Assembly: GCF_032842345.1 (NCBI RefSeq)
Contig: NZ_WBKO01000001.1
Coordinates: forward strand, 1,550,001 to 1,614,000
Reading direction: 5' to 3'
Length of the DNA: 64,000 nt
Source of the DNA: Methanoculleus caldifontis
Lineage (GTDB): Archaea > Halobacteriota > Methanomicrobia > Methanomicrobiales > Methanoculleaceae
The translations under genes and the position numbers were made by a program. Shown here piece after piece: positions 17,184 to 45,717 of this stretch. Below the pieces are notes generated by a model. That model was not told where the DNA came from. It did not search any database and saw only the letters and a program-made list of their open reading frames with translations. The stretch's first letter is position 1; each line of letters starts with the position of its first letter.

Positions 17184-17320
17184 TCAAACCGGCGGAACCT
17201 GAACTTCCGGCACCAGGTCCTCCGACTTCGTGACCGCCCGGACTATCCTGGCAACGATCTCCTGCTCCTCCGGCTGAAAAAATCCACGAATGATAACGAT
17301 ACCTCTTTCCTGCCCCGGAC
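17184..17320 (-). pseudogene. C-terminal remnant of an archaeal ATPase gene
   Basis: Read on the minus strand this encodes QPEEQEIVARIVRAVTKSED followed by LVPEVQVPPV and TGA at 17184-17186. It aligns with the C-terminus of the second ATPase of the pair at 39278-40945 (QPEERAVVAGIVREITGSEE, then LGAGV). Nothing upstream of about 17320 matches, because the SNF transporter gene begins at 17337. It is therefore a left-over of a second ATPase-pair copy. The rest of the interval 16869-17336 shows only the operator-like repeats. Confidence 0.65.
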
Positions 17321-21298: not shown

Positions 21299-21472
21299 AT
21301 GAGTGAAACGACCCGGAAGGTTATGCGCTGCCCGATATGCCGGAGCACCGACATCTACTGGGACGCCCGTGGCCTGTACGCGACGCTGTATCATTGTCGG
21401 CAGTGCGGGTATCAGGGAGCGTTTATTCTGGAGTGTGAGGACGCAAAAGATGATGGGCCGGGCGGGAGTTGA
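21299..21472 (+). CDS. Small zinc-ribbon protein
   Basis: A 57-residue protein from ATG 21299 with two CxxC pairs (CPICRS and CRQCGY) separated by about 24 residues, the pattern of a rubredoxin-like zinc ribbon. Its last six codons are read from the antisense strand of a tRNA-Ala 3' end (21454-21508), so the natural C-terminus may have been replaced when something integrated there. Function unknown. A longer frame from 21227 is possible. Confidence 0.6.
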   Translation: MSETTRKVMRCPICRSTDIYWDARGLYATLYHCRQCGYQGAFILECEDAKDDGPGGS

Positions 21473-21508
21473 ACCCGTGGTCTCTTCCATGCCGGGGAGT
21501 TCCCCTGC
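21454..21508 (-). pseudogene. Decayed 3' part of tRNA-Ala(GGC)
   Basis: Read on the minus strand, this shares GGCATGGAAGAG, a T-arm of the form CGGGTTCAA-TCCCG and a terminal CGG(C)CCA with the intact tRNA-Ala(GGC) at 45646-45717, with a few substitutions; the anticodon stem is mismatched and the 5' half is gone. It is best read as an attachment-site remnant at the left edge of the accessory region. Confidence 0.65.
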
Positions 21509-27517: not shown

Positions 27518-29071
27518 ATGATCACCGGCGAAATCAAGAATCAAGTCGACCACATCTGGGATGCCTTCTGGTCCGGCGGTATCTCAAACCCACTGGAAGT
27601 GATCGAGCAGATTACCTACCTGCTCTTCATCCGCCGCCTCGACGACCTTCACACTCTGGAAGAGAACAAGGCCAACCGGCTCAGTAGACCGATGGAACGG
27701 CGGGTATTCCCGCAGGGCAATGATGCCAAGGGCCGCGCTTACGAGGACTTCCGCTGGTCCCGCTTCAAGCACTTCGCCCCGGCCGAGATGTTCACCGTGG
27801 TCGACGAGCACGTCTTCCCTTTCCTACGCGACGATCTCGCGCAGCAGCTTGGCAACGGAGACTCCACCTATGCGCACCACATGGAGGGCGCTCGCTTCAC
27901 TATCCAGAAGCCGGCGCTGCTCGCCAAGGTGGTTGATATGCTCGACAAGGTCCCGATGGAAGATCGCGACACCAAGGGTGACATCTATGAGTATATGCTT
28001 GCCAAGATCGCGACCGCTGGGCAGAATGGGCAATTCCGCACCCCGCGTCATATCATCCAACTGATGGTCGAACTCACGGCACCGCAGCCGAACGACGTCA
28101 TTTGCGACCCTGCCTGCGGCACGGCGGGCTTCCTGGTCGCGGCGGGTGAATACCTGCGCAAGCACTACCCGAACCTGCTCCACGACGAGACATTGCGCAA
28201 ACACTTCCACTACCACCTCTTCCACGGCTTCGACTTCGACAACACGATGCTGCGCATCGCCAGTATGAACATGCTGCTGCACGGTGTGGAGGGCCCGGAT
28301 ATTCGTTACCGCGACTCGCTTGCACAGGACCATGCGGGAGAGGAAGAGAAGTACACGCTGGTGCTTGCCAATCCGCCCTTCGCGGGCAGCCTCGACTACG
28401 AGAACACCGCCAAGGACCTCCTCCAGATTGTCAAGACCAAGAAGACTGAGTTGCTCTTCCTCGCGCTCTTCCTCCGCCTCTTGAAGTCCGGCGGACGTGC
28501 AGCGGTGATCGTGCCCGAAGGCGTGCTCTTCGGGTCGAGCAAGGCGCACAAGGAGTTGCGCCGCATCCTGGTCGAGGATCAGAAACTCGATGCCGTGGTG
28601 AAGCTCCCTAGCGGTGTGTTCAAACCCTACGCGGGCGTTTCGACGGCGATCCTCGTCTTCACCAAGACCAACTCCGGCGGCACCGACTTTATCTGGTTCT
28701 ATGATGTTGAGGCCGACGGTTGGAGCCTCGACGACAAGCGCACACCGCTCCTGTCTGAAGACAAGCTCGGTTCCGTACCCTGCACGGCGCTAACCGACGA
28801 CGAGTACGCGATGAACAACCTGCCCGATGTGCTCGCACGCTGGCCGCAGCGAGCCGGCGCCGAACGGAACCGCCCGCGCACTGCGCAGAGTTTCTGCGTG
28901 CCAAAAGATGATATTGCCGCCCAGGGCTACGACCTCTCGCTCAACCGGTACAAGGAGGTGGTGTACGAGGCCGCCGAACACCGCTCGCCGAAGGAGATCC
29001 TCGCCGATCTGTGGAAGCTGGAGGACGAGATCCAACGGGGGATGAAGGAACTGGAGAGGTTGTTCGGATGA
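27518..29071 (+). CDS. hsdM: Type I restriction-modification methyltransferase subunit
   Basis: A 517-residue HsdM. The N-terminal helical domain (about 1-150) is followed by the adenine-N6 methyltransferase core with the SAM motif DPACGTAGF (197-205) and the catalytic NPPF (285-288), then a helical tail that binds HsdS. It methylates adenine within the site chosen by HsdS and is part of the M2S(R2) complex. A GGGAGAG ribosome binding site precedes ATG 27518. Its stop overlaps the hsdS start by four bases. Base and codon use look less archaeal than in the core genes, which suggests transfer. Confidence 0.96.
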   Translation: MITGEIKNQVDHIWDAFWSGGISNPLEVIEQITYLLFIRRLDDLHTLEENKANRLSRPMERRVFPQGNDAKGRAYEDFRWSRFKHFAPAEMFTVVDEHVFPFLRDDLAQQLGNGDSTYAHHMEGARFTIQKPALLAKVVDMLDKVPMEDRDTKGDIYEYMLAKIATAGQNGQFRTPRHIIQLMVELTAPQPNDVICDPACGTAGFLVAAGEYLRKHYPNLLHDETLRKHFHYHLFHGFDFDNTMLRIASMNMLLHGVEGPDIRYRDSLAQDHAGEEEKYTLVLANPPFAGSLDYENTAKDLLQIVKTKKTELLFLALFLRLLKSGGRAAVIVPEGVLFGSSKAHKELRRILVEDQKLDAVVKLPSGVFKPYAGVSTAILVFTKTNSGGTDFIWFYDVEADGWSLDDKRTPLLSEDKLGSVPCTALTDDEYAMNNLPDVLARWPQRAGAERNRPRTAQSFCVPKDDIAAQGYDLSLNRYKEVVYEAAEHRSPKEILADLWKLEDEIQRGMKELERLFG

Positions 29072-30252
29072 GTGTACGGAACAGCGTTCCCCTCGTTGAA
29101 GTTGCGGAAGTCTTCAATGGAAAGACACCATCCAAGTCAGAACAGCGAAGTCGCGGGCATCCTGTGCTTAAGATTAAGGATGTGAGCGACCTAGGTGAGT
29201 TCCGAGGCACATTCGACTCATTCATTGATCCTGAGCTCGCCGATGCCTACGCAAACAAACAGCTCCGCGAAGGCGATACGCTGATTCTTAATGCTGCGCA
29301 CAACGCGAACTATGTGGCCTCGAAAACCTTCCGTGTGCAACGCCCCACCGTGGGGGCTTTCGCAACCGGCGAATGGTTGGTTCTCCGTCCAGTAGAGTCT
29401 CGACTAGATCCAGGATTTATGTTCCATTGGGTAAATAGCCCTGATACGCGGCGAGCGATTCGGGACATGGTCAAGGGAATCCATCTTTATCCCAAGGATG
29501 TTGCGCGTCTTCGTATCTCGCTTCCACCCCTCCCTGAGCAGCGGCGAATTGCGGAGATCCTAGACAAGGCGGATGCGCTACGGACCAAGCGCCGCGCCGC
29601 CCTCGCCCAGCTTGACACCCTCATCCAATCCATTTTCCTCGATCTGTTCGGCGACCCCGCCACGAATCCGAAGAGGTGGCCGAAGAGAGCGTTCGGTGAA
29701 GTATGTGAAACCAGGCTTGGGAAGATGCTCGACCAAAAGCAACAGACTGGTAAGCATCGGCGTCCCTATCTGCGCAACGCAAACGTGCAGTGGTTCAGAT
29801 TTGACATCACCAGCCTGTTCGAAATGGACTTTGATGATGACGATCGTCGTATTTTCCGACTTCAGTCTGGGGATCTGTTGATCTGCGAGGGGGGTGAGCC
29901 TGGACGTGCGGCAGTGTGGCGAGGCGAGCTTGAGGAATGCTATTTCCAGAAGGCGCTTCATCGTGCTCGCCCTAATCCCAATCTGGCATTGGCTGAGTAT
30001 CTCGCCTGGTTGTTGTGGTTCCTTAATCAGGCGGGCATGCTTAGCGGCGTGACGTCTGCGACGATCGCACATCTGACGGGCGAGAAACTGGCGGTGCTGC
30101 CAACAATGCTGCCGCCGTTGTCCCTACAACAAGAGTTCGCGAACCGCGTCACTTCCATCGAAAATGTGGAGGCAAGTTTCCAAACCTCACTTCACCGACT
30201 TGATGGAATGTTCGCTTCACTCCAGCACTGTGCCTTCCGGGGGGATCTATAG
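29068..30252 (+). CDS. hsdS: Type I restriction-modification specificity subunit
   Basis: A 394-residue HsdS with two target-recognition domains (about 1-150 and 205-345), each followed by a conserved spacer helix: LPPLPEQRRIAEIL at about 152-165 and LPPLSLQQEFANRV at about 348-361. Each domain reads one half of a bipartite DNA site. The second half is less conserved than the first, as usual. ATG 29068 overlaps the hsdM stop (ATGA). Confidence 0.95.
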   Translation: MSVRNSVPLVEVAEVFNGKTPSKSEQRSRGHPVLKIKDVSDLGEFRGTFDSFIDPELADAYANKQLREGDTLILNAAHNANYVASKTFRVQRPTVGAFATGEWLVLRPVESRLDPGFMFHWVNSPDTRRAIRDMVKGIHLYPKDVARLRISLPPLPEQRRIAEILDKADALRTKRRAALAQLDTLIQSIFLDLFGDPATNPKRWPKRAFGEVCETRLGKMLDQKQQTGKHRRPYLRNANVQWFRFDITSLFEMDFDDDDRRIFRLQSGDLLICEGGEPGRAAVWRGELEECYFQKALHRARPNPNLALAEYLAWLLWFLNQAGMLSGVTSATIAHLTGEKLAVLPTMLPPLSLQQEFANRVTSIENVEASFQTSLHRLDGMFASLQHCAFRGDL

Positions 30253-30254
30253 CC

Positions 30255-31373
30255 ATGCGCGGAGAGCTTATCGGCGTGTGGTCGGAGATGTGGCGAGGGA
30301 TTTGGCTACCGCTCATAGAGCAGCCGCTTGATGAGAACGAAGAGGGCGTGCCGGCGGACATCTTTTGTGAGTTGTACCGCGAGCTCGCCAAGGCTCTAAA
30401 GAGGCCAACAGACGATAGTGCGATCGTCTTGCTCGTTGAGGACGCTGTCACATTGAAAGAGGCTTTCGAACTCAGTGCGCATCGATCAGGTCAACAACTG
30501 GTACTTGAGCAAGTAGATGAGGCATTCAGTCAATCGGGCGCTACAGAGCTTATACATGCCGGAGAAAGAAGAACGGCTGTCGAAGCTGCGCTGACAACTC
30601 TGCTCGGACAACCTGCAGCTCCGCTCTTGGATGCACAACTGCACGAACTCGTGCAGGATCCCTTGAGGGTTGAGGCAGCGAGGCGGCGCGCACTCGAACG
30701 GATAATTAACGATCAGCAGAAGAGCCGCGAGGCATTTGAGAATACAAGAGCCGAAGACCTCGCCGGGGAGCGGGCGCTGGTCGGATTTCTCGAATCCGTG
30801 CCCGATGCGCTGAAAGAACTCGACTGTAACGATCTGACCAACACCTACTTCGACCTGCTCGCCGTCTTTATCGAGAAGTTCAGCCTCCGCTACGATCTGT
30901 GTCCTCCGTGCAGACTCTGTCCGAACCTCCCCGGTGTCTTCGTGAGCCTTGTTCGAAACCTACAAGCACTGGCCGCCACCGACCCGCACCTCGACACCCT
31001 AATGAAGGAGTTCGAGAACGCGATCCGCAATCTACAGCACGATTGCTCTGAGGGCCACATCAAGACCTGTATTCAAAAGCAAGTAAACTTGTTAGAAGCC
31101 ATCGGGGGGACATATCCTGGTGTCAAAGATGGAGAGCTCGGGAGTATGTGCGGCCAGATTAAAAGCTGGCCACACCCTGCGGTAAGAGCAGCTCTAGGGA
31201 ATCTTTACGGGTTTGCATCTTCTTACCCCGGAATCCGACACGGCGGCAATGCCGAAAGCGCGTTACGCAATGTGGACATGCGCGATTTGGTTGCGATTTC
31301 TATCGTGTTCGCTGGCTTCACACCGTACCTGAGCAATGGGCTCGACGCCGACCAAGTGTATCGGGGGGCATGA
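30255..31373 (+). CDS. Abortive-infection-like (Abi-C) protein in the restriction operon
   Basis: A 372-residue protein placed between hsdS and hsdR, 2 bases after hsdS and 1 base before hsdR, so it belongs to the operon. The N-terminal part is mainly helical; a CPPCRLC cluster lies near residue 217; the last ~60 residues ([20 protein letters not shown] then [16 protein letters not shown]) match the pattern of the abortive-infection C-terminal domain (an R-H-G-x-A-type HEPN-related helix pair). It may be an RNase-like effector controlled by the complex, or an accessory factor. The Abi-C match is by eye. Confidence 0.65.
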
Positions 31374-31374
31374 G

Positions 31375-34300
31375 ATGAGCCAGTTCGCCTTCCTCCAGCA
31401 CGAATGGGCCGTCGTGTTCGAGGCAGCGTCGAAGGCCGAGGCGGCGGTCCACGCCGACCCAAGGACGGCCTGTTTCTATGCCCGCCGTGCGCTGGAGCTC
31501 GCGGTGAGCTGGGCCTACAAGCATGACGCAGCGTTGCGGCTCCCGTACCAGGACAACATCTCGGCGCTGATCCACGAACCGAGCTTCAAGCAGACTGCGG
31601 GCGAGGCGGTGTTCAACAAGGCGCGGGTGATCAACACGCTCGGTAACCGCGCCGTGCATAGCCGTCGCCCAGTACCGGAGTCGGACGCGCTCGCGGCGGT
31701 GCTCGAGATGTTCCACGTCGCCTACTGGTTCGCCCGCACCTACGCACGCGCCGAGCGACCGGCGCCCGGGCTCGCGTTCGATCCGGCGGCGCTGCCCCGG
31801 CCCGCGCCAGCGGCGACGCAGACTGCGGAGCAGTTGCAGGCTCTAGAAGTGCGCTTGCGGGAGCGTGACGAAAGCCTCTCGGCGTTGCTAGTGGACAAGA
31901 CCGCGCTCGATGAAGAGCTGAAGCGCCTACGCGCCGAAGTCACGAAGGCGAAGAAGGCCGCCGAGGCACAGCCCGACACGCACGACTACTCCGAAGCCGA
32001 GACGCGGGACTACTTCATCGACCTGCTGCTCAAGGAGGCCGGGTGGCCGCTTGACCAGCCTCGCGACCGCGAGTTCGAGGTCAGCGGCATGCCCAACAAT
32101 AAGGGCAAGGGCTACGTCGACTACGTGCTCTGGGGGGACGACGGGAAGCCCCTTGGACTGATCGAAGCCAAACGCACGCGCCGCGATGCTCGGGTGGGGC
32201 AGCAACAGGCCAAGCTCTACGCCGATTGCCTGGAGCGTCAGTTCGGCCGTCGGCCGGTCATTTTCTACTCAAACGGCTACGAACACTGGATCTGGGACGA
32301 CATGCGCTACCCGCCGCGCCAGGTGCAGGGCTTCTACAAAAAGTCGGAGTTGGAGTTGCTGGTTCAGCGCCGCGAGACGCGGCGGCGGCTCGCCGAGGCG
32401 CCGATCAATCCAGCGATCGCCGAACGTTATTACCAGACACGCGCCATTCGTCGTATTGCCGAGGCGTTCGAGCGCGACCACGATCGCAAAGCGTTGCTCG
32501 TGATGGCGACCGGTGCCGGGAAGACGCGCACGGTGATCGCGCTCTGCGACCTACTGATACGCTGCAACTGGGTGAAACGCGTGCTCTTCCTCGCCGATCG
32601 CGTGGCGCTCGTGAATCAGGCAGTGAACGCTTTCAAGCGCCACCTGCCCGATTCGTCGCCCGTGAACCTGGTCGCCGAAAAGGACACCGAGGGGCGCGTC
32701 TTCGTCTCGACCTATCCTACCATGATGGGTCTGATCGACCAGGCCGCGGACGGTCAGCGACGCTTTGGCCCCGGACACTTCGACCTCATAATTATCGACG
32801 AGGCGCACCGGTCGGTGTTCCAGAAGTACCGTGCGATCTTCGATTATTTCGACTCGCTGCTCATCGGACTGACGGCGACGCCGAAGGACGAGTTGGATCG
32901 CAACACCTACAGGCTCTTCGACCTCGAAAGCGGCGTGCCGACCGATGCCTACTCACTGGAGGAGGCCGTGCGTGACGGCTACCTCGTGCCGCCGCAGGCC
33001 GTTTCGGTGCCGCTCAGGTTCCAGCGCGAGGGTATCACGTATGACGAGCTTTCGGAGGAGGAGAAGGACCAGTGGGATACGCTGGAGTGGGATGACGAAG
33101 GCACCGTGCCGGACCGGGTCGAGGCTCAGGCCGTCAACAGGTGGCTCTTCAACAAAGATACCGTGGACAAGGTGCTGGCGCATCTGATGACGCGTGGCCT
33201 CACGGTTGCGGGCGGCGACCGGCTGGGTAAGACGATCATATTTGCTAAGAATCAGCAGCACGCCGACTTCATCGCCGAGCGCTTCAACGTTAACTACCCA
33301 CACTACCGGGGCGAGTTCGCACGCGTCATCACCTTTAAAACCGAGTATGCGCAGAACCTGATCGACAACTTCTCCAACAAGGAGAAGGCACCGCATATCG
33401 CGATCTCGGTGGACATGCTCGACACGGGTATCGACGTGCCGGAGGTCGGGAACCTTGTCTTCTTCAAGCTTGTGCGGTCAAGGACTAAGTTCTGGCAGAT
33501 GGTCGGGCGCGGTACGCGGTTGTGCCCGGACCTGTTCGGCCCGGGACAGCACAAGGAGTTCTTCTATCTCTTTGACTACTGCCAGAACCTCGAGTACTTC
33601 AGCCAGGATATGCCGGCAACTGAGGGTTCGGCGGCAGCGTCGCTGGGCAAGCGGCTCTTCAACGCACGGCTGGAACTGGTCGCAGCACTGGATAGCCGTG
33701 CTCAGAACATGCCGGTCGCGACAGTTGGGGAGTCGACGGCGACATACGGTGATCCGAGGACGAACAATGAGGTGAGGCAGTCCGTCTCGGAACTGCTGCA
33801 ACGCGAGGTGGCGTCAATGAACGTTGACAACTTCGTTGTTCGCCCGCACCGGCGCCTGGTCGAGGAGTATGCTAAGCCCGAAGCGTGGGTAGCGCTGGCG
33901 GGAGAGGCTCTCTCGGAGCTTTCCTGTGAACTAGCAGGGCTTCCTACACAGCTCGATCCTGAGAACGAAGAGGCGAAGCGCTTCGATCTACTTGCCCTGA
34001 GGTTACAACTCGCCTTACTGCATGCCGAACCCGGATTTCCACGTCTGCGCGACCATGTCATGAAGATTGCCGGACTGCTGGAAGAGAAGGATGCCATTCC
34101 ATTGGTCCGCGAACAGATGGCCCTGATCCAGGATGTACAGAGCGATGAGTGGTGGCAAGATGTCACAGTGCCGATGCTGGAAGTGATGCGGCGCCGGTTG
34201 CGCGAGTTAGTGCAGTTCATCGACAAGCGCCAACGCAAGCCAGTCTATACGGACTTCGAGGACCTGATGGGGAGCGAGACTGACTTCACCCTGCCCGGCT

Positions 34301-34788
34301 GCACGGTGGGTACCGATCAAGCCAAGTTTGTCGCAAAAGCGCGAGCGTTCCTGAACCAGCACCTCGATCACACTGTGATTGCCAAACTGCGGATGAACCA
34401 GCCGCTTACCTGCCCTGATCTCGCAGAACTGGAGCGTTTGCTCGGTGAGAGTGGTACAGGTGGATTGGATGATATCCGTCGGGCGGCGGACGAAGCCCAT
34501 GGGCTAGGTCTCTTTGTGCGGTCACTCGTGGGGATGGATAGGAGCGCGGCCAAAAATGCGCTAGGAGGGTTCATCAGAGGAAAACCATTCACTGCGAACC
34601 AGCTTGAGTTCGTCAACCTGATCGTGGACCACCTGACCGAGCACGGGGTCATGGAACCCGCCCTACTCTACGAGTCGCCGTTCACGGACCTCACACCGCA
34701 GGGGCCGGAGGGTCTGTTCCAGTCGGCTGAGATGGATGAGTTAATCCGGGTGCTCAAGGCCGTGCGGGAGACGGCTGTGGCAGCTTAA
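31375..34788 (+). CDS. hsdR: Type I restriction endonuclease/translocase subunit
   Basis: A 1137-residue HsdR. Order: DUF4145-like HEPN domain (about 5-110), coiled coil (about 148-195), HSDR_N nuclease (about 205-330, with YVDYVLWG and [11 protein letters not shown] forming the D...ExK centre), superfamily-2 helicase with Walker A MATGAGKT (377-384), DEAH (475-478) and LTATP, second RecA domain with [12 protein letters not shown] and QMVGRGTRL, and an EcoEI-type C-terminal domain that binds the methylase. It translocates DNA and cuts unmodified molecules. ATG 31375 is chosen because it follows the previous stop by one base. Confidence 0.95.
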
Positions 34789-34825: not shown

Positions 34826-34953
34826 ATAGGGGCGGCGGTGGGCCTCGGAAACCTCTGGCGGTTCCCCTATATCTGTTACGATAACGGCGGCGGGGCATTC
34901 CTCCTCCCTATGTCCTCGCCCTGCTCTATGCTGGCATCCCACTCTGGCTGATT
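34826..34953 (+). pseudogene. 5' fragment of an SNF-family transporter gene
   Basis: This encodes [20 protein letters not shown], the first helix of the transporter at 17337-18848, then GGGAFLLP and, after a one-base frameshift, [14 protein letters not shown]. It is about 85 percent identical by eye to 17381-17515. Both ends break off abruptly, so it is a displaced fragment. Confidence 0.8.
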
Positions 34954-34957
34954 CGAC

Positions 34958-35085
34958 CGCAGGTCGACCCGGCCTCCTGCAGCGCCGCCAGTGCATCCTC
35001 CCGCCTCGTGGCCGCGACGTATAACAAATCTGCTATATAAAAAATCCGTTGTTTTTCGGCCGGGCCTGCTTCCGGGGGCCGGCAC
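34958..35085 (-). pseudogene. Joined fragments of an ATPase pair
   Basis: On the minus strand, 34973-35020 encodes AATRREDALAALQEAG, matching AAGRREDVLAGLKEAG inside the second ATPase (39278-40945). It is joined at about 35021 to a decayed version of the 32-bp palindrome that precedes the first ATPase (here 35021-35053), followed by the same upstream GCCGGCAC block. So a decayed, rearranged copy of the ATPase locus lies here. Confidence 0.65.
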
Positions 35086-35201
35086 CGTCTCAATGCCGGC
35101 ATATGCGCAGCGGCACCTGGACAGGAAGACCGGAAGAACGACAACGGACCGTGACAGCAGGCGACCCCGGGAGCGGAGGCGATCGTTGAGCCGGAGAAGT
35201 G

Positions 35202-36698: not shown

Positions 36699-38711
36699 TC
36701 ACATCGCCGCTGAAGAGGCATTTGCTTGTTTAACTGCTTCACTTGCGGTTTTCGTTTTTTCAATGAGCCTATTCTTTTGTATTTCAAGCTGATTGTTTAC
36801 GAAACTGTGCCTAATTTCACAATCGCTTAATATATCGCTCCACTTCCGAATGTATATTTTACAATTCTCTAAATCTTGGACTATCCCTCTTTCTCCCTTC
36901 CCCTCATAACTTTTTATCTCCCTCTCAATGAGGCCCCTTGAATCGTATTTCGTTCCGACTAAGATGAATTCCCACGAAAAGCTATCACCATTAAACCGAG
37001 GTTCGGATAATACCACGCTTAAATAGGTTTTTACTTGATTTAACTGCTCTAACCCAATTCGCTTTTTTGGGTGCTTAAGTTCGATAATAACATTGTGAAC
37101 GCCTTTATGGTGCTTATTTTGCCGACAGATGAAGATATCGACCTGTTTATTCTTATCAGGATTATCAATGTGAACTTTTTCATCCTTTGCCGATAGTATG
37201 CGAATCTGATTGCGAAGGGCTTTCTCGAAGGTGTCTTCAGCTGCCGCCACCAGGGCATATTGTTCCCCAAAAAGCCATGTATTGCTTTCCACAATTTTTT
37301 GGATGTGATCTACCTCATTTGCCCCAAAGGAGTCGTTGAATAGACATTCTTCTATCAGTTTCAGTACCATTTGTCTATCGGCGATTAATTTTATTGTCTT
37401 AACAATTTTCTGCATTTCAGTTACTTTGAGCAGCTCGGCCAATTCTCCCCTCTCGTCAGCATCGAGCTCCACAATATCCTCAATAATTTTCAAGATTTCA
37501 TCTCGATCTTCAGAATTTAGTACGACATTTAAGAGGCTTATGAGCATCTTTTGCTGCTCTTGACTTAAATCCAAAAAGATTCGTGGCTGGGTTGTATATA
37601 TCTCTTGAATTACTTCTTCCAGATCCTCTATCTGGATTAACTGAAAGGAATCGGCATCCTTTTTTGCGATAATACCTTCTCTCTCAAAGTCTGCGATGAC
37701 TTTTTTGGCATGTTGTCGTAAAAATGGCTTCCTTTTTCTTCGTAAATATCCCTGTAGTTGTTCAGTTAATTGTTTGAATGTCTCATCCGAGCGCCCAAAT
37801 CCAGTGATATTCTCTTGGTCTTCTGTGGAGTCAAATTTAAAGTTCCTGAAGTATTTACTTGCGATGAAAACGCTGTGATAAAACCTATCTCCCTTCTTAT
37901 TCAATGTCGTATACTCTTTATGGAGTTCGTTGCAATTATGATCTAAATAGTAATACTTTGAATATTCCTGGTTTAATGGTATTTTCCATCTAACATAACG
38001 TATAGAAAACATTTCTCCTTGTCGTTTCCCTGTCAAAGTAAAATTTTCTTCATCTCCTATAAGAGGACTATAATCTAACTTTACGCCATTAATAATTAAT
38101 TTGTAGCCTTTATACTTATTCAACTCCAAGAACCAGCAAAATTCCCGCTTTAAATATTCTAATAATTCGGTTTCCCCTACGTTTTTCCCATATTTATTGT
38201 GGTTGTACTCCTTAAAGTCAGAAAATGTCACCACTGTGCTTGGTTGTTTATTGGATTCTTCGGGATTTTCATCTAATCCCGAAAATAATTCAAGCTTGTT
38301 ACCTAATATTTCAATAGAATATGAGTATGTCTTCTCCCCTTGCTGGTACGCCGTTTCCCATCGAGCTCTTCGTGCGAAAGTAACAAACGTTAATCTACCC
38401 AATCCATTTTTCCCATGGTACTGTGATGTGTTTCGGTTATTGCCGTCGTCTTTGAGTTTATCCGATTCAAAAATGGGTTGAAATTTAAGATTGAGTTGGT
38501 CATGGGGAATACCATGACCATTGTCCCTGATAACAAGCCTTCGTAGCCCCCCTGCGCTAAACTCATAGTCGAGCTCAACTATGGACGCACGAGCATCAAA
38601 GCCATTCCAAATATACTCGGCCACTGCTTTGGGGAAATTTTTGTCAGTGAATTTTAATTTGCTCAAGGCAGTAATAATGCCTTCAGTGGTGATTTTAACT
38701 TCTTCTGGCAT
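36699..38711 (-). CDS. GHKL ATPase fused to a PD-(D/E)xK (Shedu-like) nuclease
   Basis: A 670-residue protein. Residues about 1-330 form a Hsp90/MutL-type GHKL ATPase: Asn36 in the N box (AEYIWNGFDA), DNGHG at 63-67, and GKNGLGR at 100-106. A helical connector follows (about 340-475). The C-terminal ~190 residues resemble the DUF4263/Shedu nuclease: WLFGEQYALVAAAED, then VDIF (Asp525) and IIELKHPKKR (Glu544-x-Lys546), followed by a helix with QLNQVKTY. It is probably an ATP-gated DNA nuclease used in defence. ATG 38711 is the chosen start; a GGGGAGAG-flanked ATG 33 bases upstream and ATG 38840 are alternatives. AT-rich, unlike the core. Confidence 0.75.
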   Translation of the reverse strand: MPEEVKITTEGIITALSKLKFTDKNFPKAVAEYIWNGFDARASIVELDYEFSAGGLRRLVIRDNGHGIPHDQLNLKFQPIFESDKLKDDGNNRNTSQYHGKNGLGRLTFVTFARRARWETAYQQGEKTYSYSIEILGNKLELFSGLDENPEESNKQPSTVVTFSDFKEYNHNKYGKNVGETELLEYLKREFCWFLELNKYKGYKLIINGVKLDYSPLIGDEENFTLTGKRQGEMFSIRYVRWKIPLNQEYSKYYYLDHNCNELHKEYTTLNKKGDRFYHSVFIASKYFRNFKFDSTEDQENITGFGRSDETFKQLTEQLQGYLRRKRKPFLRQHAKKVIADFEREGIIAKKDADSFQLIQIEDLEEVIQEIYTTQPRIFLDLSQEQQKMLISLLNVVLNSEDRDEILKIIEDIVELDADERGELAELLKVTEMQKIVKTIKLIADRQMVLKLIEECLFNDSFGANEVDHIQKIVESNTWLFGEQYALVAAAEDTFEKALRNQIRILSAKDEKVHIDNPDKNKQVDIFICRQNKHHKGVHNVIIELKHPKKRIGLEQLNQVKTYLSVVLSEPRFNGDSFSWEFILVGTKYDSRGLIEREIKSYEGKGERGIVQDLENCKIYIRKWSDILSDCEIRHSFVNNQLEIQKNRLIEKTKTASEAVKQANASSAAM

Positions 38712-38938
38712 ACGGCAAGGAGTATTGTGATAAACTCTCCCCATTAAGGTTTTGTTTTTACTTTTAAGAGGTAAAGGCCATCGGAGAACTATTTCCGCTA
38801 TTCTATGAAGCCAAAATCCTGAAGTTATAGAGGATTCCAAGAAAATTGGAGTGAGTCACTAACAGTACAGATACCCGAGCATGTCATAACACACCTCGTC
38901 TCTCACCCTCTCCGACCTTCCCGACAACCACGCGCCCC

Positions 38939-39052
38939 GCAGCGTATGTTATACTACCTCTCTAAGACCTCCCGCCGCCCACGCATGATCACCGGAGTGT
39001 ACAAAGGTGCAAGTGTACGTACCCAGAAGGAAGAGCCCGATAGAAAGAGAAA
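38939..39052 (+). promoter_or_regulatory. Promoter/operator of the ribbon-helix-helix gene, copy A
   Basis: The motif GTGTAC occurs twice (about 38998 and 39013, the latter as AGTGTACGTAC) before ATG 39053. The same arrangement, with a perfect palindrome, precedes copy B at 45411-45446. From AGCGTATGTT onwards the two upstream regions align for over 100 bases. Autoregulation by the encoded ribbon-helix-helix protein is likely. Confidence 0.55.
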
Positions 39053-39250
39053 ATGCCAAACGAACCGCGCAAAAACCGCGTCCGGCAACGCCTCCACATC
39101 CCAGTCTCCCCTGAAGTCCAAGACTATCTGAAAAACCGCATCGGCAACGTCAGCCTATTCATCGATACGACCATCAGCAACGCCACTCTATCGATTCAAC
39201 CATCGATAACAGTGCTTTCACAAAACAAGATGGACCGGGCGGGAATCGAA
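39053..39250 (+). CDS. Ribbon-helix-helix DNA-binding protein, copy A
   Basis: From ATG 39053 the frame reads a basic start (MPNEPRKNRVRQRLHIPVSP), then EVQDYLKNRIGNVSLFID, the strand-helix-helix pattern of a CopG/Arc-like protein. It enters a tRNA-Ala 3' end (39231-39250) in frame, giving MDRAGIE, and stays open to 39454 over the antisense of an ATPase gene, so the true end is uncertain; the annotated end marks the tRNA fragment. Copy B (45468) reads into the tRNA in the same frame. It could be a transcription factor or a recombination directionality factor for the element. Confidence 0.6.
39231..39250 (-). repeat. tRNA-Ala 3'-end direct repeat (attachment-site candidate)
   Basis: The 20 bases ending in CGGTCCA on the minus strand repeat the T-loop/acceptor end of tRNA-Ala(GGC) at 45646-45665 with two differences. 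Upstream sequence (the tRNA 5' part) is absent. Together with the shared ribbon-helix-helix gene it forms a direct repeat of about 310 bases with 45358-45665. Confidence 0.65.
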
Positions 39251-39277: not shown

Positions 39278-40945
39278 CTAAACCCCCGCCCCCAGCTCCT
39301 CCGACCCCGTGATCTCCCGGACAATCCCGGCAACGACCGCCCGCTCCTCCGGCTGCAGCCTCGTATAGTACAGCCTAGTATCCTTCGCCTCGACGATCGC
39401 CACGGCATCCGCGACCGGCTTCAAGAACCCCTCGTACCCGGCGCCCCCGGATAGAACGATCTCGCGGACGGCGCTCCCGACAGCGGAGACCTCCCCCGCC
39501 CCGATTAGCCGCTTCAGGAACCCTGCCGTCATCCTCCGTGCCGTTGCCGGGTCCAGGCGGCCCGCGTGCGCATATGCCAGTCTGATTAACGAGAGGCCGT
39601 TTGCCCGGTTCCCGGCCAGCAGCTCCTCCCCCGCGAGATCGAGCGTGATCTCCACGGACCGCGCCAGCCGGTCCGGGTCGTCGGGTTCTTCCCCGGCCTC
39701 CTTTAATCCCGCCAGAACATCCTCCCGCCTCCCGGCCGCGATCCGGTCCGGCAGGGCAACGCCCTCCATAACGCCCGATGCCCCCCGGTATGGTATATCG
39801 ACGGCCGCCGGATGCCCATGCCAGGCCTCCAGAAATCCGATGAGGACAAACACCCGGTCACGGCCGGCCGGCCTCCGCATCGCCCGCCACAGCGAAAAAA
39901 GCCGGTCCCGGGCCTCGTAGGTCGTCCTCTTCTTCATCGGGCGGGAGACGACGTAGCCCTCGGCCTCCAGCCTCCGGAGCTGCGCGTTCACCGTCGCGAG
40001 GTTCAGCCGGGCGCGCTCTGCGACGTCTTTCGGGGTGAGCGGGGTCTCTGCGGTGAGGATCGTATCGAGGATGAGCCGCCGCTGCCCCGGAAGCCTCCGG
40101 AAGACCTCCCGGTAGTAGGGCGTCTGCTCGTCCGCCAGCCTGAAGAAGGCCTCCGCCGCCCTGCCGGCCCCGCACTGCGAGAGGATCTCGTACAGCCGGA
40201 TCACCAGCCCCGGGTTGCCGCCGATGAGGTGCCGGAGCGCCTCGATGCCGGGCTCGTAGTCCCCGAAGTTCTCGATGAAGGCGGTATCGCCGTCGACCTC
40301 CGCGACCCTCCGCATGAGGTCCTTTGATTCGGCGCAGTCGAGCTCCCGGAGGTGAAAGACCCGGAAGAAGTTGTAAAACGGTTCCTCATGGTCGAGGACT
40401 CCGGGGAAGAGCGACGGTGCCGACGCAATGACCGAGAGATAATCTGTCCGCTGGAAGACCGACCGCAGCGCCCGGACCTCGCGCCTCTCCATCTGGTCAA
40501 AGACCTCGTGGATGTTCTCGACGAAGACCACGACCTGCCGCTCCCCGGCCGCTGCGGCGATCCTCTCGACCGCGGCCTCGCGGACCAGCGAATCCTCGCC
40601 GAGCGCGGCCACGTCGGAGGTCTCGACCCCCATCCCCGCGAGCACCCGGAGAAAGAAGTCGGACGCCCTGAATATCGAGTACTCTTCCTCTGCAAGGTCT
40701 ACCGGGATCACCAGGCCGGAGAGTTCGTCGCGTATCCTCCGGCAGAGCAGGCTCATCAGGTGGGACTTCCCGGCGCCCCGGGACCCGACCAGGAGGAAGA
40801 ACCGCGGCGTTCTGCTCGCGGACGCCCGGTCCGCTTCGTAAAAGAGGCTCTCCAGGAGTTCCTGCCGGCCGACGAGAAGGTGCTCGAGCGTCTCCCTTTC
40901 AAGGGCCGCGGGGAAGTAGCGGTAACACCTACCAGGTGCCGGCAT
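39278..40945 (-). CDS. Archaeal AAA ATPase with winged helix, second of a pair
   Basis: A 555-residue protein. An AAA/STAND-type NTPase module has Walker A GSRGAGKS (54-61) and a hydrophobic strand VVVFVENIHE as Walker B. After the lid comes a winged helix (TPKDVAERARLNLATVNAQL, EAEGYVVSRPM) and a C-terminal alpha-helical region ending LQPEERAVVAGIVREITGSE. It overlaps the end of the first ATPase gene by 17 bases, so the two are made together. Remnants of homologues lie at 17184 and 34973. Likely a regulatory or defence NTPase; substrate unknown. Confidence 0.7.
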   Translation of the reverse strand: MPAPGRCYRYFPAALERETLEHLLVGRQELLESLFYEADRASASRTPRFFLLVGSRGAGKSHLMSLLCRRIRDELSGLVIPVDLAEEEYSIFRASDFFLRVLAGMGVETSDVAALGEDSLVREAAVERIAAAAGERQVVVFVENIHEVFDQMERREVRALRSVFQRTDYLSVIASAPSLFPGVLDHEEPFYNFFRVFHLRELDCAESKDLMRRVAEVDGDTAFIENFGDYEPGIEALRHLIGGNPGLVIRLYEILSQCGAGRAAEAFFRLADEQTPYYREVFRRLPGQRRLILDTILTAETPLTPKDVAERARLNLATVNAQLRRLEAEGYVVSRPMKKRTTYEARDRLFSLWRAMRRPAGRDRVFVLIGFLEAWHGHPAAVDIPYRGASGVMEGVALPDRIAAGRREDVLAGLKEAGEEPDDPDRLARSVEITLDLAGEELLAGNRANGLSLIRLAYAHAGRLDPATARRMTAGFLKRLIGAGEVSAVGSAVREIVLSGGAGYEGFLKPVADAVAIVEAKDTRLYYTRLQPEERAVVAGIVREITGSEELGAGV

Positions 40946-42116
40946 AATAGATCCTCCACCAGTCCCGGAGCATCTTTGAGTAGAACCGCAACTCGCCAGG
41001 GGTCTCCGAAGTGACGTAGAAGTCGTGGTTCAGTTGTGCCAGCAGCGCTCTGAACGCATCCTCGCTCTCCGACGCGGTGCTCTGCCGGAAGATCTCGTAG
41101 GCGATACCCGCGGGCAGGGACTCCGCGAGACTCACCCTGCTTAAGATGGCGCGGGCGGCCTTCGCCTCCTGCCCGGAGTAGGTCGTCTGGAGGCGGCGCG
41201 AGTAGTGCTCGAAGTAGTGGCGCCCCTCGCTGCCGAGGATCCTCCTGCTGTAGACCCGCTCGACCAGCGCCGGGGAGGGCACCCCTCCGGAGATATCCGC
41301 CTCTTCCTTCAGGCCGGAGAGGACGATCATGAGGAAGTAGGGGATGTAGGGCTCGCCCACGCAGTCGAGAACCGCCCGCCCGATCTCCGGCGAATACTCC
41401 CACCCTTCTCCCCGAAAGACGCGTTCGACGACGGAGAGCGCGACATCTTCGCTGAACCCGCCGATGGTGACTCTCCGGAAGTCGTTGATGACCGGGGTCC
41501 CGCCGATATGGTAGACGACGTGGTCGATGCTGACCGAGCCCCCGACGATGAACCTCACCCCTGCCGAGACCTGCCGCAGCCGCCGGAACCACTGCAGGAA
41601 CTTCCTCGCATCCTCTCTCTCCATATTCTGTATGGCAACCGGAAACTCGTCGAGGATGATGCAGACCGGCCCGGTGAGCCCTGCAAAGATCTCATCCACC
41701 TTCTTTGCCTTCTCGTGCCAGTCGTCCGAGAACTCCGCTCGCAGCCGGCCCCGGAGCTTTGCCCTGAAGGCCGGGGTCTCGATCTCGTCGATATTCTCCT
41801 GCACCAGGGCAAACGCCTTGCCGAGCGCCGAGGAGATCCGGGCTCCGGGGCTCGCCCCCTCGCACTCGACGAGCGCCGTGACGAGATCGGTGATGAACTC
41901 CCCCGGGGAGTTGACGCTCTCGACCTCAAGGAATACGCACGATTGGTCTCTGCTCGCGAGGTCTCTCTCGATCTTTCGCATGATCGAGGTCTTGCCGAAC
42001 CGCCGGGGGGCGACGAGCATGACGTGGTCGTTCTTGATGGTGCTCAGGATGAACGCGGTCTCACGTTCGCGGTCGACGAAGTCGTCTCCTGTTGCGGGGC
42101 TTCCTACGGGCAGCAT
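40929..42116 (-). CDS. Archaeal ATPase (PF01637-like), first of a pair
   Basis: A 395-residue ATPase starting MLPVGSPATGDDFVDREREТ-like, the usual opening of archaeal ATPases of this family; Walker A is APRRFGKT (36-43), Walker B CIILDEFPV, and a sensor region FIVGGSVSID follows. The C-terminal part is a helical/winged region ending DWWRIYYAGTW. ATG 42114-42116 is chosen because the A/T-rich palindrome at 42142-42173 then acts as promoter; the frame is open to GTG 42194 through the palindrome, giving a longer alternative. Partner of the next gene, with which it overlaps. Confidence 0.75.
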   Translation of the reverse strand: MLPVGSPATGDDFVDRERETAFILSTIKNDHVMLVAPRRFGKTSIMRKIERDLASRDQSCVFLEVESVNSPGEFITDLVTALVECEGASPGARISSALGKAFALVQENIDEIETPAFRAKLRGRLRAEFSDDWHEKAKKVDEIFAGLTGPVCIILDEFPVAIQNMEREDARKFLQWFRRLRQVSAGVRFIVGGSVSIDHVVYHIGGTPVINDFRRVTIGGFSEDVALSVVERVFRGEGWEYSPEIGRAVLDCVGEPYIPYFLMIVLSGLKEEADISGGVPSPALVERVYSRRILGSEGRHYFEHYSRRLQTTYSGQEAKAARAILSRVSLAESLPAGIAYEIFRQSTASESEDAFRALLAQLNHDFYVTSETPGELRFYSKMLRDWWRIYYAGTW

Positions 42117-42141
42117 GTACGACACCAGACAGATCTGGTAT

Positions 42142-42173
42142 ATAACGAATCTGTTATATAACAAATTCGTTAT
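42142..42173. promoter_or_regulatory. 32-bp near-perfect palindrome over the ATPase-pair promoter
   Basis: ATAACGAAT (42142-42150) is mirrored by ATTCGTTAT (42165-42173), and the centre GTTATATAAC (42153-42162) is itself palindromic: 15 of 16 base pairs match. The centre resembles a TATA box 37 bases before ATG 42116, so a dimeric repressor could block transcription. A decayed copy is found at 35021-35053. Confidence 0.6.
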
Positions 42174-42388
42174 TCTCCGGGCAGGGGCCGGCACTATCTC
42201 GATGCTGGTAATAAGGTCCTGAACGCGACAGAAGAGTATGAAAAACTCATCGAAAAATTTCCGATTTGATATTTCAACGTATCTTTTTTCATAAATCCCG
42301 CTAGGAGAACATAGATAAATATTAAGTAACCCTTGCTCGATAATTTTATTGGTGGTACGATACGAGTAGAAGTCCTCCTAAAAACAGC

Positions 42389-43558: not shown

Positions 43559-45166
43559 TTATAAAATTTGTTTTCCAATGTTCAAAGCTTTTCGCATTCC
43601 AATGAATATTCTGTATTTAGAGTGAGTTTTAACTTTTGGTGCTAGATTAGCATAAGTTCTCTGTTTATAACAGAATTTCCCGAAATCTTCATTGCGAGTC
43701 CGTTCTAGATAACTGATTATATTAAGGTCATATAGCAACTGTAAAAATGTATCTGCATCAGAGCAGAATGGCGGGATCTTATAATTGTAATCGTAAGTAT
43801 ACTCAATTAATTTAAAAAATGCACTATTGAATTCAGAGTAATTAAAATCAGATTTACCGTTCAAGAAATCGAAAAACTTTTTGAACACTTCAAAGTCCTT
43901 TTCCGAATAAAAAAAGGACATCTGGTCTTTGATCTCTCCTAAATAATAGTCTGCCAATTGTCTTTGAAAATCTGTATTTTTAAAATCCTCATGAGAGAAT
44001 GCTTGAGTAGTCTTACCTTTTCTATTAACTGATATATCCCTTAAAATGTTCATCATCGTGACAATATCTCTTGGTCGATACAAGGAGTGTCTTAAGATGC
44101 CGATGAATGAATCATCAAAATCATGGTTACTACTCCTACGGGCAGATCGATTTGGAATTTTATATGGGAAGTAGTAATTCCACGCCGCTCCAGACTCAAG
44201 GGCTTCATCTTGCTGAGATCTTAAGAGATTGTCGGCTATGCTGAAGATGTAAGAAGTTCGGTAATTTTTATCCGTAGTATTCCAATCTAATATCACGGAA
44301 TTATCCCGCAATCTGTTATTTTGGTTTTGTAGTCCGAATTTGTTAAATATATCGGGTCTAACCAGCAATACTGCTCTTAAACTGCCACTATCACTTCCTA
44401 TCAAAGAGAAGAAATCATTATTAACGGTCCAAATTGCATTAGCTAGCCCCTTTATACAATCCAAGTAATCCTCAAAGGCGATGCCATATGGCTTAATATC
44501 GATACCATCAAGGAATAAAATATGATTCTTGGTTAAATTAAGGGTGCTTAATGCTTCTCGAAACTTTTGCTTTATGGTCATTAATTTTACTTGATATCGA
44601 TGCTCTGTCGATTCGAGCGTTTTTTTATCCTCACCACCGAATTTAAAGCCTGCTGGATCGTACTTAGAGAAAATTTCTGCGGCAACAGCAGAGTTTTCAA
44701 CTAGTTTTATTGCAAAAGGAATTTCAGGAGAGAAAGCCGATTTGAAAAATTCCCTCATTATATCTTGTAATTGCTTAAACTTTAAATACTTACTAATAAA
44801 GTTTGGCTCTTCATTTTCGAGGATTTGCTGGGAAATTAGGAAGTAAATAATTATTTCCCATATATCTCTATAGTCTGAGAGGCTCAGCTGATTTTCTTGT
44901 TTCAGCGTGACAAATTTATGATATTCCGTTTCCCTTAAAAATCGTATGGCGCCGTAATTCTCCTTATAGGCATTATTAGAGAAATACACTGCATATGCAG
45001 TTTTACCAGTCCCTTTCTCCCCTACCAAAAAATAAACATTGTCGTCACATAATTTGTCTAAAGCGTCAGTATGTATGAATATTTTATTAAACAGTTCTCT
45101 GTCTCTTGGACGCTTATAATTTTCAGCATCATTATAGCCTAGATCTAAATTAGCAATGGGAAGCAT
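43559..45166 (-). CDS. P-loop ATPase, Sll1717/FunZ-like family
   Basis: A 535-residue, AT-rich gene product. After a start typical of the family (NLDLGYNDAENYKRPRDREL) comes Walker A GEKGTGKT (49-56), a long helical insertion, the Walker-B-like strand HILFLDGIDI and VLLVRPDIF, and a helical C-terminus with YRPRDIVTMMNI. Such proteins are common in defence islands; their function is not established. The composition differs strongly from the core chromosome, and the gene is alone on its strand. Confidence 0.7.
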   Translation of the reverse strand: MLPIANLDLGYNDAENYKRPRDRELFNKIFIHTDALDKLCDDNVYFLVGEKGTGKTAYAVYFSNNAYKENYGAIRFLRETEYHKFVTLKQENQLSLSDYRDIWEIIIYFLISQQILENEEPNFISKYLKFKQLQDIMREFFKSAFSPEIPFAIKLVENSAVAAEIFSKYDPAGFKFGGEDKKTLESTEHRYQVKLMTIKQKFREALSTLNLTKNHILFLDGIDIKPYGIAFEDYLDCIKGLANAIWTVNNDFFSLIGSDSGSLRAVLLVRPDIFNKFGLQNQNNRLRDNSVILDWNTTDKNYRTSYIFSIADNLLRSQQDEALESGAAWNYYFPYKIPNRSARRSSNHDFDDSFIGILRHSLYRPRDIVTMMNILRDISVNRKGKTTQAFSHEDFKNTDFQRQLADYYLGEIKDQMSFFYSEKDFEVFKKFFDFLNGKSDFNYSEFNSAFFKLIEYTYDYNYKIPPFCSDADTFLQLLYDLNIISYLERTRNEDFGKFCYKQRTYANLAPKVKTHSKYRIFIGMRKALNIGKQIL

Positions 45167-45410
45167 GCATCATCCTCTGAACAAATATTCACGGATCTAA
45201 CTCAATATAAACCCTTTTAAATTGAATTAATATTTTAAATCTTAAATGACAGGATTAAATCCTAGATACAACACTGAACATCTAAAAGTTGCATGTTCAC
45301 ACTCTTTCTGAAATAGAGTAGCACAGCCTCCTCAGCAGCCGCGTACCGCATATCTCACAGCGTATGTTACTACCTCCTTAAGACCACCTGCCGTCCGTGC
45401 ATGATCACCG

Positions 45411-45446
45411 GAGTGTACGTACAAAGGTGCAAGTGTACGTACACTC
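45411..45446. promoter_or_regulatory. Paired GTGTACGTAC operators before ribbon-helix-helix copy B
   Basis: AGTGTACGTACACT (45432-45445) is a perfect 14-bp palindrome; a second GTGTACGTAC lies at 45413-45422. Both precede ATG 45468 and correspond to the diverged sites upstream of copy A. Typical of an autoregulated ribbon-helix-helix gene. Confidence 0.6.
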
Positions 45447-45467
45447 AAAACGGATGAAGCAGAGAAC

Positions 45468-45645
45468 ATGCCAAGAAAACCTCAAAAACGGCGTATCCGG
45501 AAGCGGATCTAAATCACCGTCTCCCCGGAAGTCCACGATTACCTGAAAAACCGCGTTGGCAATGCCAGTAGATTCTTGGATGCGCTAACCAGAGATGCTA
45601 TTTCCGGAATACAGCCTGTGATATTTTTTCTATCACGAAAAAGGA
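45468..45645 (+). pseudogene. Ribbon-helix-helix gene, copy B, with an early stop
   Basis: From ATG 45468 the frame reads MPRKPQKRRIRKRI, then TAA (45510-45512), then ITVSPEVHDYLKNRVGNASR and FLDALTRDAI. It aligns with copy A over the whole domain, so the TAA is a nonsense mutation. The frame continues through the tRNA-Ala antisense (MDRAGIEPA). The rest of 45167-45467 is AT-rich and gene-free. Confidence 0.65.
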
Positions 45646-45717
45646 TGGACCGAGCGGGAATTGAACCCGCGGCCTCTTCCATGCCAAGGAAGCGATCTTC
45701 CCCTGATCTATCGGCCC
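45646..45717 (-). tRNA. tRNA-Ala (anticodon GGC)
   Basis: A complete 72-base cloverleaf: acceptor GGGCCGA pairing with TCGGTCC and containing the G3-U70 wobble pair that identifies tRNA-Ala; D arm GATC/GATC; anticodon stem CTTCC/GGAAG with loop TTGGCAT (anticodon GGC); variable AGGCC; T arm GCGGG/CCCGC with TTCAATT; discriminator A. No intron and no encoded CCA. Its 3' end is repeated at 39231 and, in decayed form, at 21454. Confidence 0.95.

What the first reader, a model, noticed from the sequence alone, without database searches (positions are those of the whole stretch)
39278..42194. Overlapping pair of different ATPases behind a 32-bp palindrome, with remnants at two other places
Two dissimilar NTPases share a 17-base overlap and a palindromic promoter. 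Decayed pieces of the same locus are found at 17184-17320 and 34958-35085, the latter including the palindrome. Repeated gain and loss inside 25 kb, next to restriction systems, is the behaviour of a mobile defence or selfish system. I know no described function for this two-ATPase arrangement.
Basis: partly seen in the sequence, partly recalled or inferred. Interest (0 to 1): 0.7.

Follow-up and report, generated by a model that had tools for sequence, protein, structure and literature searches.

The report
Self-regulated archaeal pair of sensor ATPases
Two overlapping archaeal genes make two different ATPases of the kind used in cell-signalling and immune switches, and they travel together across methane-cycling archaea behind a private, repeated DNA control site; their job is unknown, but they look more like a self-regulated stress or signalling switch than a roaming antiviral cassette.

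Summary
Genes B (40929-42116) and A (39278-40945) overlap by 17 bases. B starts at ATG 42116, not GTG 42194, so the palindrome lies in the promoter. The "32-bp palindrome" is two tandem 16-bp units, TAAC-N6-GTTA, interleaved with TATA-like sequences. Both decayed pieces are real.

The two genes are a true unit. In a 393-genome phylum sample B occurs in 23 genomes and A in 25, all 23 B beside A. The operator is conserved in Methanoculleus, Methanosarcinales, other lineages and one Thermodesulfobacteriota genome. In 8/8 checked Methanoculleus genomes with the pair, the single-unit motif occurs once, in front of B. Distant A proteins carry up to 15 TPR repeats between an NTPase-wHTH core and a conserved C-terminal domain: STAND architecture. 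B was deleted at least five times with operator and A kept; the reverse was never seen.

Mobile defence is not supported outside Methanoculleus: 104 neighbours show almost no defence genes, contexts are conserved, and no viral relative was found. The best reading is an autoregulated STAND-type switch, with A as sensor/regulator and B as dispensable output. An association with mismatch-repair and recombination genes is suggestive, not shown.

The parts
40929..42116 (-). Gene B, first gene of the operon: 395-aa P-loop NTPase (ATPase_2/AAA_22-like, weak Pfam), Walker A APRRFGKTS, Walker B CIILDEFP, invariant C-terminal FYSKMLRDWWR motif
   Evidence: AF2 model pLDDT 80.5, best PDB matches 2qen and 2fna; dN/dS 0.13-0.17 against near relatives
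39278..40945 (-). Gene A, second gene: 555-aa NTPase (AAA_16) + winged helix (HTH_24/MarR, residues ~286-348) + short variable linker (TPR array in distant relatives) + conserved C-terminal helical domain
   Evidence: AF2 model pLDDT 76.1, pTM 0.52, PDB matches Orc1/Cdc6, CED-4, Apaf-1, Avs3
40929..40945 (-). 17-nt B/A overlap, relative frame conserved in relatives (translational coupling inferred)
42142..42173 (.).
42138..42161 (-). Two TATA-like sequences overlapping the operator, starting 45 and 29 nt before the ATG of B; probable core promoter (inferred)
17199..17276 (-). Remnant of the 3' end of an A gene, in the chromosomal region where other Methanoculleus carry the pair
34968..35099 (-). 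Remnant: internal piece of A (34968-35017) joined to a degenerate operator and upstream sequence (35020-35099)
34826..34952 (+). Duplicated 5' piece of the sodium-dependent transporter gene next to the remnant (copy of 17388-17515)
45646..45717 (-). tRNA-Ala(GGC); its 3' end is duplicated at the left edge of the segment that carries the pair
38940..39250 (.). Direct repeat (72%) of 45358-45665, including ~20 bp of the tRNA-Ala 3' end; possible old integration boundary

Best explanation
B-A is a self-regulated two-gene switch built from two STAND-type (Apaf-1/MalT-like) NTPases. A is the sensor and regulator: an NTPase, a DNA-binding-type winged helix, then a TPR array (lost in most Methanoculleus, including here) and a conserved C-terminal domain that senses a protein or small-molecule cue. 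In the resting state A sits as an oligomer on the tandem TAAC-N6-GTTA units that overlap the TATA sequences and keeps the operon low; a cue and the nucleotide switch release it, and B and A are made together through a translationally coupled overlap. B is the NTP-dependent output partner and is dispensable. Shown: gene pair, overlap, domains, operator conservation and privacy, one-sided loss of B, purifying selection on A without B. Inferred: that A is the protein that binds the operator, that the effect is repression, that B is the output arm. Unknown: the cue and the output.
For: Strict linkage: in 393 phylum genomes B in 23, A in 25, all 23 B adjacent to A; pairwise divergence of B and A is correlated (r 0.90). 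Architecture: AAA_16 plus MarR/HTH_24 winged helix; conserved GG(S/N)P motif; up to 15 TPR repeats in relatives (14 x 102 bp array in L018); folds closest to Orc1/Cdc6, CED-4, Apaf-1, Avs3 and, for B, archaeal ATPase_2 proteins, ORC, CED-4, plant resistosomes. Operator: 37 of 44 loci have at least two units at exactly 16 bp, against 0.0001 of shuffles; TATAACN6GTTATA occurs once per genome in 8/8 Methanoculleus with the pair, always before B, and 0 in 2 without; two-unit array in 47/54 pair genomes against 5/72 pair-less genomes, three of those five with pieces of the locus beside it and a fourth a probable operator relic. One-sided loss: five B deletions that keep the operator, the start region and an intact A (G002, G006=G009, G023, BLZ2/L022, G426), no A loss with B kept; A evolves under purifying selection without B (G006/G009 dN/dS 0.38, interval 0.25-0.53; G426 against G393 0.16). 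Precedent for TPR-sensor STAND regulators: MalT and archaeal PH0952 (PMC6468293).
Against: No binding or expression data. In Apaf-1-like STAND proteins the winged helix is not a DNA-binding module, and PH0952 and MalT carry a separate DNA-binding domain; A has none besides the winged helix. The TPR sensor is absent in the window's own A. A is only moderately modelled (pTM 0.52). An array is also kept near mutS in G534 without B-A beside it, so the operator may be read by something else. Five losses against zero is modest (one-sided p about 0.03 if equally likely).
Confidence: 0.45

Rival explanations
1. Genome-maintenance switch: the pair is a stress regulator or actor tied to DNA mismatch repair and recombination, with the operator also controlling mutS-mutL in some lineages (an SOS-like role).
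For: B-A is divergent from mutS-mutL with the array in the shared intergenic region in G393, G425 and G429, with scars there in G426 and G412; a 3-unit array lies 131 bp upstream of mutS-mutL in G534 although the pair is on another contig; RuvB/RuvA 3-5 genes downstream in Methanoperedens, with MutL at the related G365 locus; OGG adjacent in L018, Pol IV near in L019; Mfd and an HhH-GPD repair protein beside the pair in the bacterial L021; RadB and a MutS-V/HhH protein beside it in Methanosarcina-like L175.
Against: Noticed after the fact; no proper background was computed. Several Methanosarcinales contexts descend from one ancestral neighbourhood, so independent cases are few. No repair gene neighbours the pair in Methanoculleus or f5. 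The G534 array may be a leftover of the ancestral arrangement.
Confidence: 0.2
2. Antiviral defence by a paired NLR-like system: A senses a viral product through TPR repeats, B is the executor.
For: STAND architecture and Avs3/resistosome-like folds; variable, near-identical TPR repeats; patchy distribution and repeated loss; R-M or toxin-antitoxin-like neighbours in some Methanoculleus.
Against: No recognisable effector domain in either protein; neighbours outside Methanoculleus are not defence genes; stable gene order in Methanosarcina-like genomes; no PADLOC hit and no relative in viral contigs.
Confidence: 0.18
3. Toxin-antitoxin-like or selfish module: B is a costly effector, A the DNA-binding antidote and autorepressor.
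For: Autoregulated overlapping operon with a palindromic operator; B lost repeatedly while A is kept, as with orphan antitoxins.
Against: Two large ATPases with no known toxin fold; long vertical inheritance in several families; A is retained under selection without B, which a pure antidote would not need.
Confidence: 0.1
4. Orc1/Cdc6-like DNA-site ATPase (replication or partition function of an old integrated element), with the array as an iteron-like site.
For: Closest PDB folds of A are Orc1/Cdc6; tandem 16-bp repeats; tRNA-Ala-flanked segment in the window.
Against: The array is always at the promoter, interleaved with TATA-like sequences; chromosomal contexts without element genes; TPR arrays are not an Orc1/Cdc6 feature.
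Confidence: 0.04

Closest known systems
PH0952 of Pyrococcus horikoshii and MalT (STAND regulators with TPR sensor; PMC6468293, PDB 6MFV)
   Same: NTPase + winged helix + TPR sensor; PH0952 is archaeal; MalT is a transcription activator that works as an oligomer (tandem MalT boxes: my own knowledge)
   Different: PH0952 and MalT carry a separate DNA-binding domain; A has only the winged helix behind the NTPase and an extra C-terminal domain; A is always paired with B; no sequence match to 6MFV in PDB searches
Archaeal ATPase_2 proteins PABY2304 (2qen) and SSO1545 (2fna)
   Same: Best fold matches of B (E 4.5e-10 and 3.2e-8); weak Pfam ATPase_2 match (E 0.0027)
   Different: B is below Pfam's gathering score, has its own invariant C-terminal motif and is operon-linked to A
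Orc1/Cdc6 initiators (2qby, 2v1u)
   Same: AAA+ plus DNA-binding-type winged helix, top PDB fold matches of A
   Different: TM only 0.39-0.43 on the query; TPR array and C-terminal domain in A; no origin context
STAND immune proteins (Apaf-1, CED-4, Dark, Avs3, NRC resistosomes)
   Same: Fold similarity, GxP-type motif, repeat sensor in relatives
   Different: No effector domain; no defence neighbourhood outside Methanoculleus; matches are remote
P-loop ATPase Sll1717 family (NF047389)
   Same: A weak N-terminal match (E 1.1e-5, cutoff not met); a true member is the neighbouring gene 43559-45166
   Different: A is far below the family cutoff

Membership tests
STAND NTPases | P-loop NTPase followed by GxP motif and winged helix | tested here: met
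   A: Walker A G(S/P)RGxGKSH, GG(S/N)P motif and MarR/HTH_24 winged helix invariant or nearly so
STAND NTPases | C-terminal repeat sensor | tested here: met
   Up to 15 TPR units in relatives, none detected in the window's A
STAND NTPases | Nucleotide-dependent oligomerisation | not testable with these tools
   needs biochemistry
MalT/PH0952-type STAND transcription regulators | Separate DNA-binding effector domain (LuxR- or ArsR-type) | tested here: not met
   No second HTH found by Pfam in A or B
ATPase_2 (PF01637) | Score above Pfam gathering cutoff | tested here: not met
   B: 18.0 bits against 33.2, although the nearest folds are ATPase_2-type proteins
Known anti-phage defence systems (PADLOC) | Confident PADLOC match | tested here: not met
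   Only weak ATPase/HTH matches, best E 1.4e-4 to a MADS8 model
Known anti-phage defence systems (PADLOC) | Enrichment beside defence genes | tested here: not met
   104 neighbours in 15 non-Methanoculleus contexts: a handful of generic matches; no random-region control run
Toxin-antitoxin modules | Autoregulated operon with DNA-binding component | tested here: inconclusive
   Operator at the operon's own promoter shown; binding protein not shown
Toxin-antitoxin modules | Toxic component neutralised by partner | not testable with these tools
   needs expression tests
Mobile genetic element | Own mobility gene, or presence in viruses | tested here: not met
   No integrase among scanned neighbours; no viral contig relative; tRNA-Ala repeats suggest old island activity in the window only

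The most novel reading that the evidence does not exclude
An archaeal SOS-like genome-maintenance switch: a STAND ATPase pair reads a DNA-damage cue and, through a private tandem operator, controls itself and, in some lineages, mutS-mutL.
Probability: 0.13. Interest if true: 0.85.

Novelty: new variant of a known kind. Interest (0 to 1): 0.52.

Why it matters
It defines a two-gene STAND unit with a cis-element so specific that its single-unit motif occurs exactly once in each of eight Methanoculleus genomes checked and stays recognisable at 50% protein identity across archaeal families and into a bacterium. That makes a regulatory hypothesis testable with one binding assay. If A is the repressor, it would be a STAND regulator that uses its core winged helix on DNA; if the mutSL link holds, it would offer a first handle on damage-responsive transcription in methanogens. 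The recurrent loss of B with retention of A is a natural dissection of which half does what.

Tried and rejected
Defence-island reading: PADLOC on the genes and on 104 neighbours gave little.

Viral origin: scan of 2.9 million viral contigs, no relative.

Direct PDB homologues by sequence: none for the B or A profiles; phmmer of A only chance-level.

First gene calling by longest ORF in GC-rich loci gave false antisense genes and was replaced by codon-usage scoring.

First TPR search failed through a bad regular expression and was redone.

DNA-repair neighbourhood as an independent statistical signal: rejected as proof because several contexts trace to one ancestral location (G365 locus L197 carries both the L018/L019-type upstream genes and the CitG-RuvBAC downstream genes of L017/L022).

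Literature searches found no description of the pair; two papers on archaeal defence or dark matter were text-searched for it without result. Subscription papers are not covered.

Full report
WHAT IS THERE. The window lies in a 2.6-Mb archaeal genome whose nearest relatives are Methanoculleus species (titles). On the minus strand B (40929-42116) is followed by A (39278-40945) with a 17-nt overlap. The finding's end, 42194, comes from an upstream GTG. All full-length B relatives begin at the equivalent of ATG 42116 or close to it (MLPVG...), so the palindrome is in the promoter. A and B share no detectable sequence similarity.

THE PALINDROME. Across 44 loci the feature is an array of 16-bp units with consensus TAAC-AAAWTT-GTTA, spaced exactly 16 bp (45 of 46 neighbouring spacings). 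37 of 44 loci have at least two units within 120 bp of the B start, against 0.01% of shuffled upstream regions. The junction of two units, GTTA-TA-TAAC, is itself TATA-like; in the window such sequences start 45 and 29 nt before the ATG. The single-unit motif TATAACN6GTTATA occurs exactly once in each of eight Methanoculleus genomes with the pair and not at all in two without it. The two-unit array was found in 47 of 54 genomes with the pair, almost always before B, and in 5 of 72 without a B match. Of those five, G429 is a cut-off B start at a contig end, G412 a decayed B start, G426 an A gene whose B is deleted, G035 a probable solo-operator relic in a Methanoculleus, and G224 a weak match that may be chance.

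THE UNIT. In an even sample of 393 genomes of the phylum, B occurs in 23 and A in 25; all 23 B genes adjoin A, and the two A-only genomes carry B deletion scars. Further cases in two orders show the same arrangement. One Thermodesulfobacteriota genome has it, with operator (the first residues of its B are in another frame). Divergence of B and of the A core is correlated (r 0.90 over 703 pairs), as expected for co-inheritance.

A AND B. A has an AAA_16 NTPase and a MarR/HTH_24 winged helix, then a stretch that varies from a short linker here to up to 15 TPR units elsewhere (in L018 a 102-bp DNA repeat, 14 copies, 84% matches), then a conserved C-terminal domain. Its model (pLDDT 76, pTM 0.52) resembles Orc1/Cdc6 first and CED-4, Apaf-1, Dark and Avs3 further down. 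B (pLDDT 80.5, pTM 0.78) resembles the archaeal ATPases 2qen and 2fna, then ORC proteins, CED-4 and plant resistosomes. Both therefore belong to the wider AAA+/STAND fold world. The best-studied architecture like A is the STAND-with-TPR family of MalT and archaeal PH0952 (PMC6468293), but those have a separate DNA-binding domain, which A lacks.

ONE-SIDED LOSS. B is deleted in G002 (residues ~40-373 gone), in G006 and G009 (first codons of B fused in frame to A), in G023 (a ~30-aa mini-B that still ends at the overlap), in Methanoperedens BLZ2 (62 + 81 aa left) and in G426 (operator directly before A). In each the operator and an open A frame remain. A alone is under purifying selection (G006/G009 dN/dS 0.38, bootstrap 0.25-0.53; G426 against G393 0.16). 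I saw no locus with B kept and A lost. So A is the core and the operator most likely serves A; that A binds it is inferred.

CONTEXT. In Methanoculleus the pair sits in one of a few places of a variable region: by tRNA-Ala and nadC (as here), between a glyoxalase gene and a methyltransferase gene, or beside a type I restriction system. In pair-less G035 glyoxalase and methyltransferase genes are 124 bp apart, an empty site. The window's remnant at 17199 lies in that second region, next to the B3/4-domain gene and glyoxalase, though the gene order there is rearranged. The pair here is enclosed by a 72% repeat that includes the tRNA-Ala 3' end. Elsewhere neighbours are housekeeping genes, with conserved order within Methanosarcina-like genomes and within family f5, and 104 neighbours gave almost no defence matches.

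DNA-REPAIR LEAD. Mismatch-repair and recombination genes recur: mutS-mutL divergent from B across the operator in G393, G425 and G429; an array near mutS in G534 without the pair; RuvB/RuvA downstream in Methanoperedens; a MutS-V protein and RadB in Methanosarcina-like L175; Mfd and an HhH-GPD protein in L021. Several of these share one ancestral location, so I treat this as a lead. The species of G410 is probably M. acetivorans, judged from its contig length (recall, not tested).

VERDICT. Real, conserved, functionally uncharacterised. The mechanism most consistent with the evidence is an autoregulated STAND-type switch with A as sensor/regulator and B as partner. Defence is possible but not favoured.

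Noticed in passing
43559-45166: P-loop ATPase of the Sll1717 family (NF047389, E 3.8e-55, above cutoff), a third NTPase in the tRNA-Ala-flanked segment.
   Followed up: no
38940-39250 and 45358-45665; 21441-21493: Duplicated tRNA-Ala 3' ends (two long repeats, one short piece) suggest successive integrations into tRNA-Ala; no integrase recognised nearby.
   Followed up: partly
36699-38840: 713-aa protein with a MutL/GHKL-type ATPase domain and a weak HSDR_N_2 nuclease match; possible defence or repair gene, no PADLOC hit.
   Followed up: no
27518-34788: Type I restriction-modification operon (M, S, R) with a 372-aa gene between S and R that matches candidate defence model PDC-S32.
   Followed up: no
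L099 (G026): Two copies of the locus in tandem: one with intact B and a 937-aa TPR-bearing A, one with a truncated B and a TPR-less A; the TPR array was lost within Methanoculleus.
   Followed up: partly
L092, L089, L094, L097, L099, L104: An additional AAA-type ATPase gene (cluster c18, 429 aa, looks like an AAA_14/DUF4143 protein) lies downstream of A in several Methanoculleus.
   Followed up: no
L194 5013-5046 (G534:C36): Three-unit operator array 131 bp before mutS-mutL although this genome's B-A pair is on another contig.
   Followed up: partly
G365, G458, G477, G529: A divergent B-A subfamily (B E-values about 1e-62 to 1e-68) with operators that depart from the consensus, e.g. TAAC...GTTG.
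   Followed up: no
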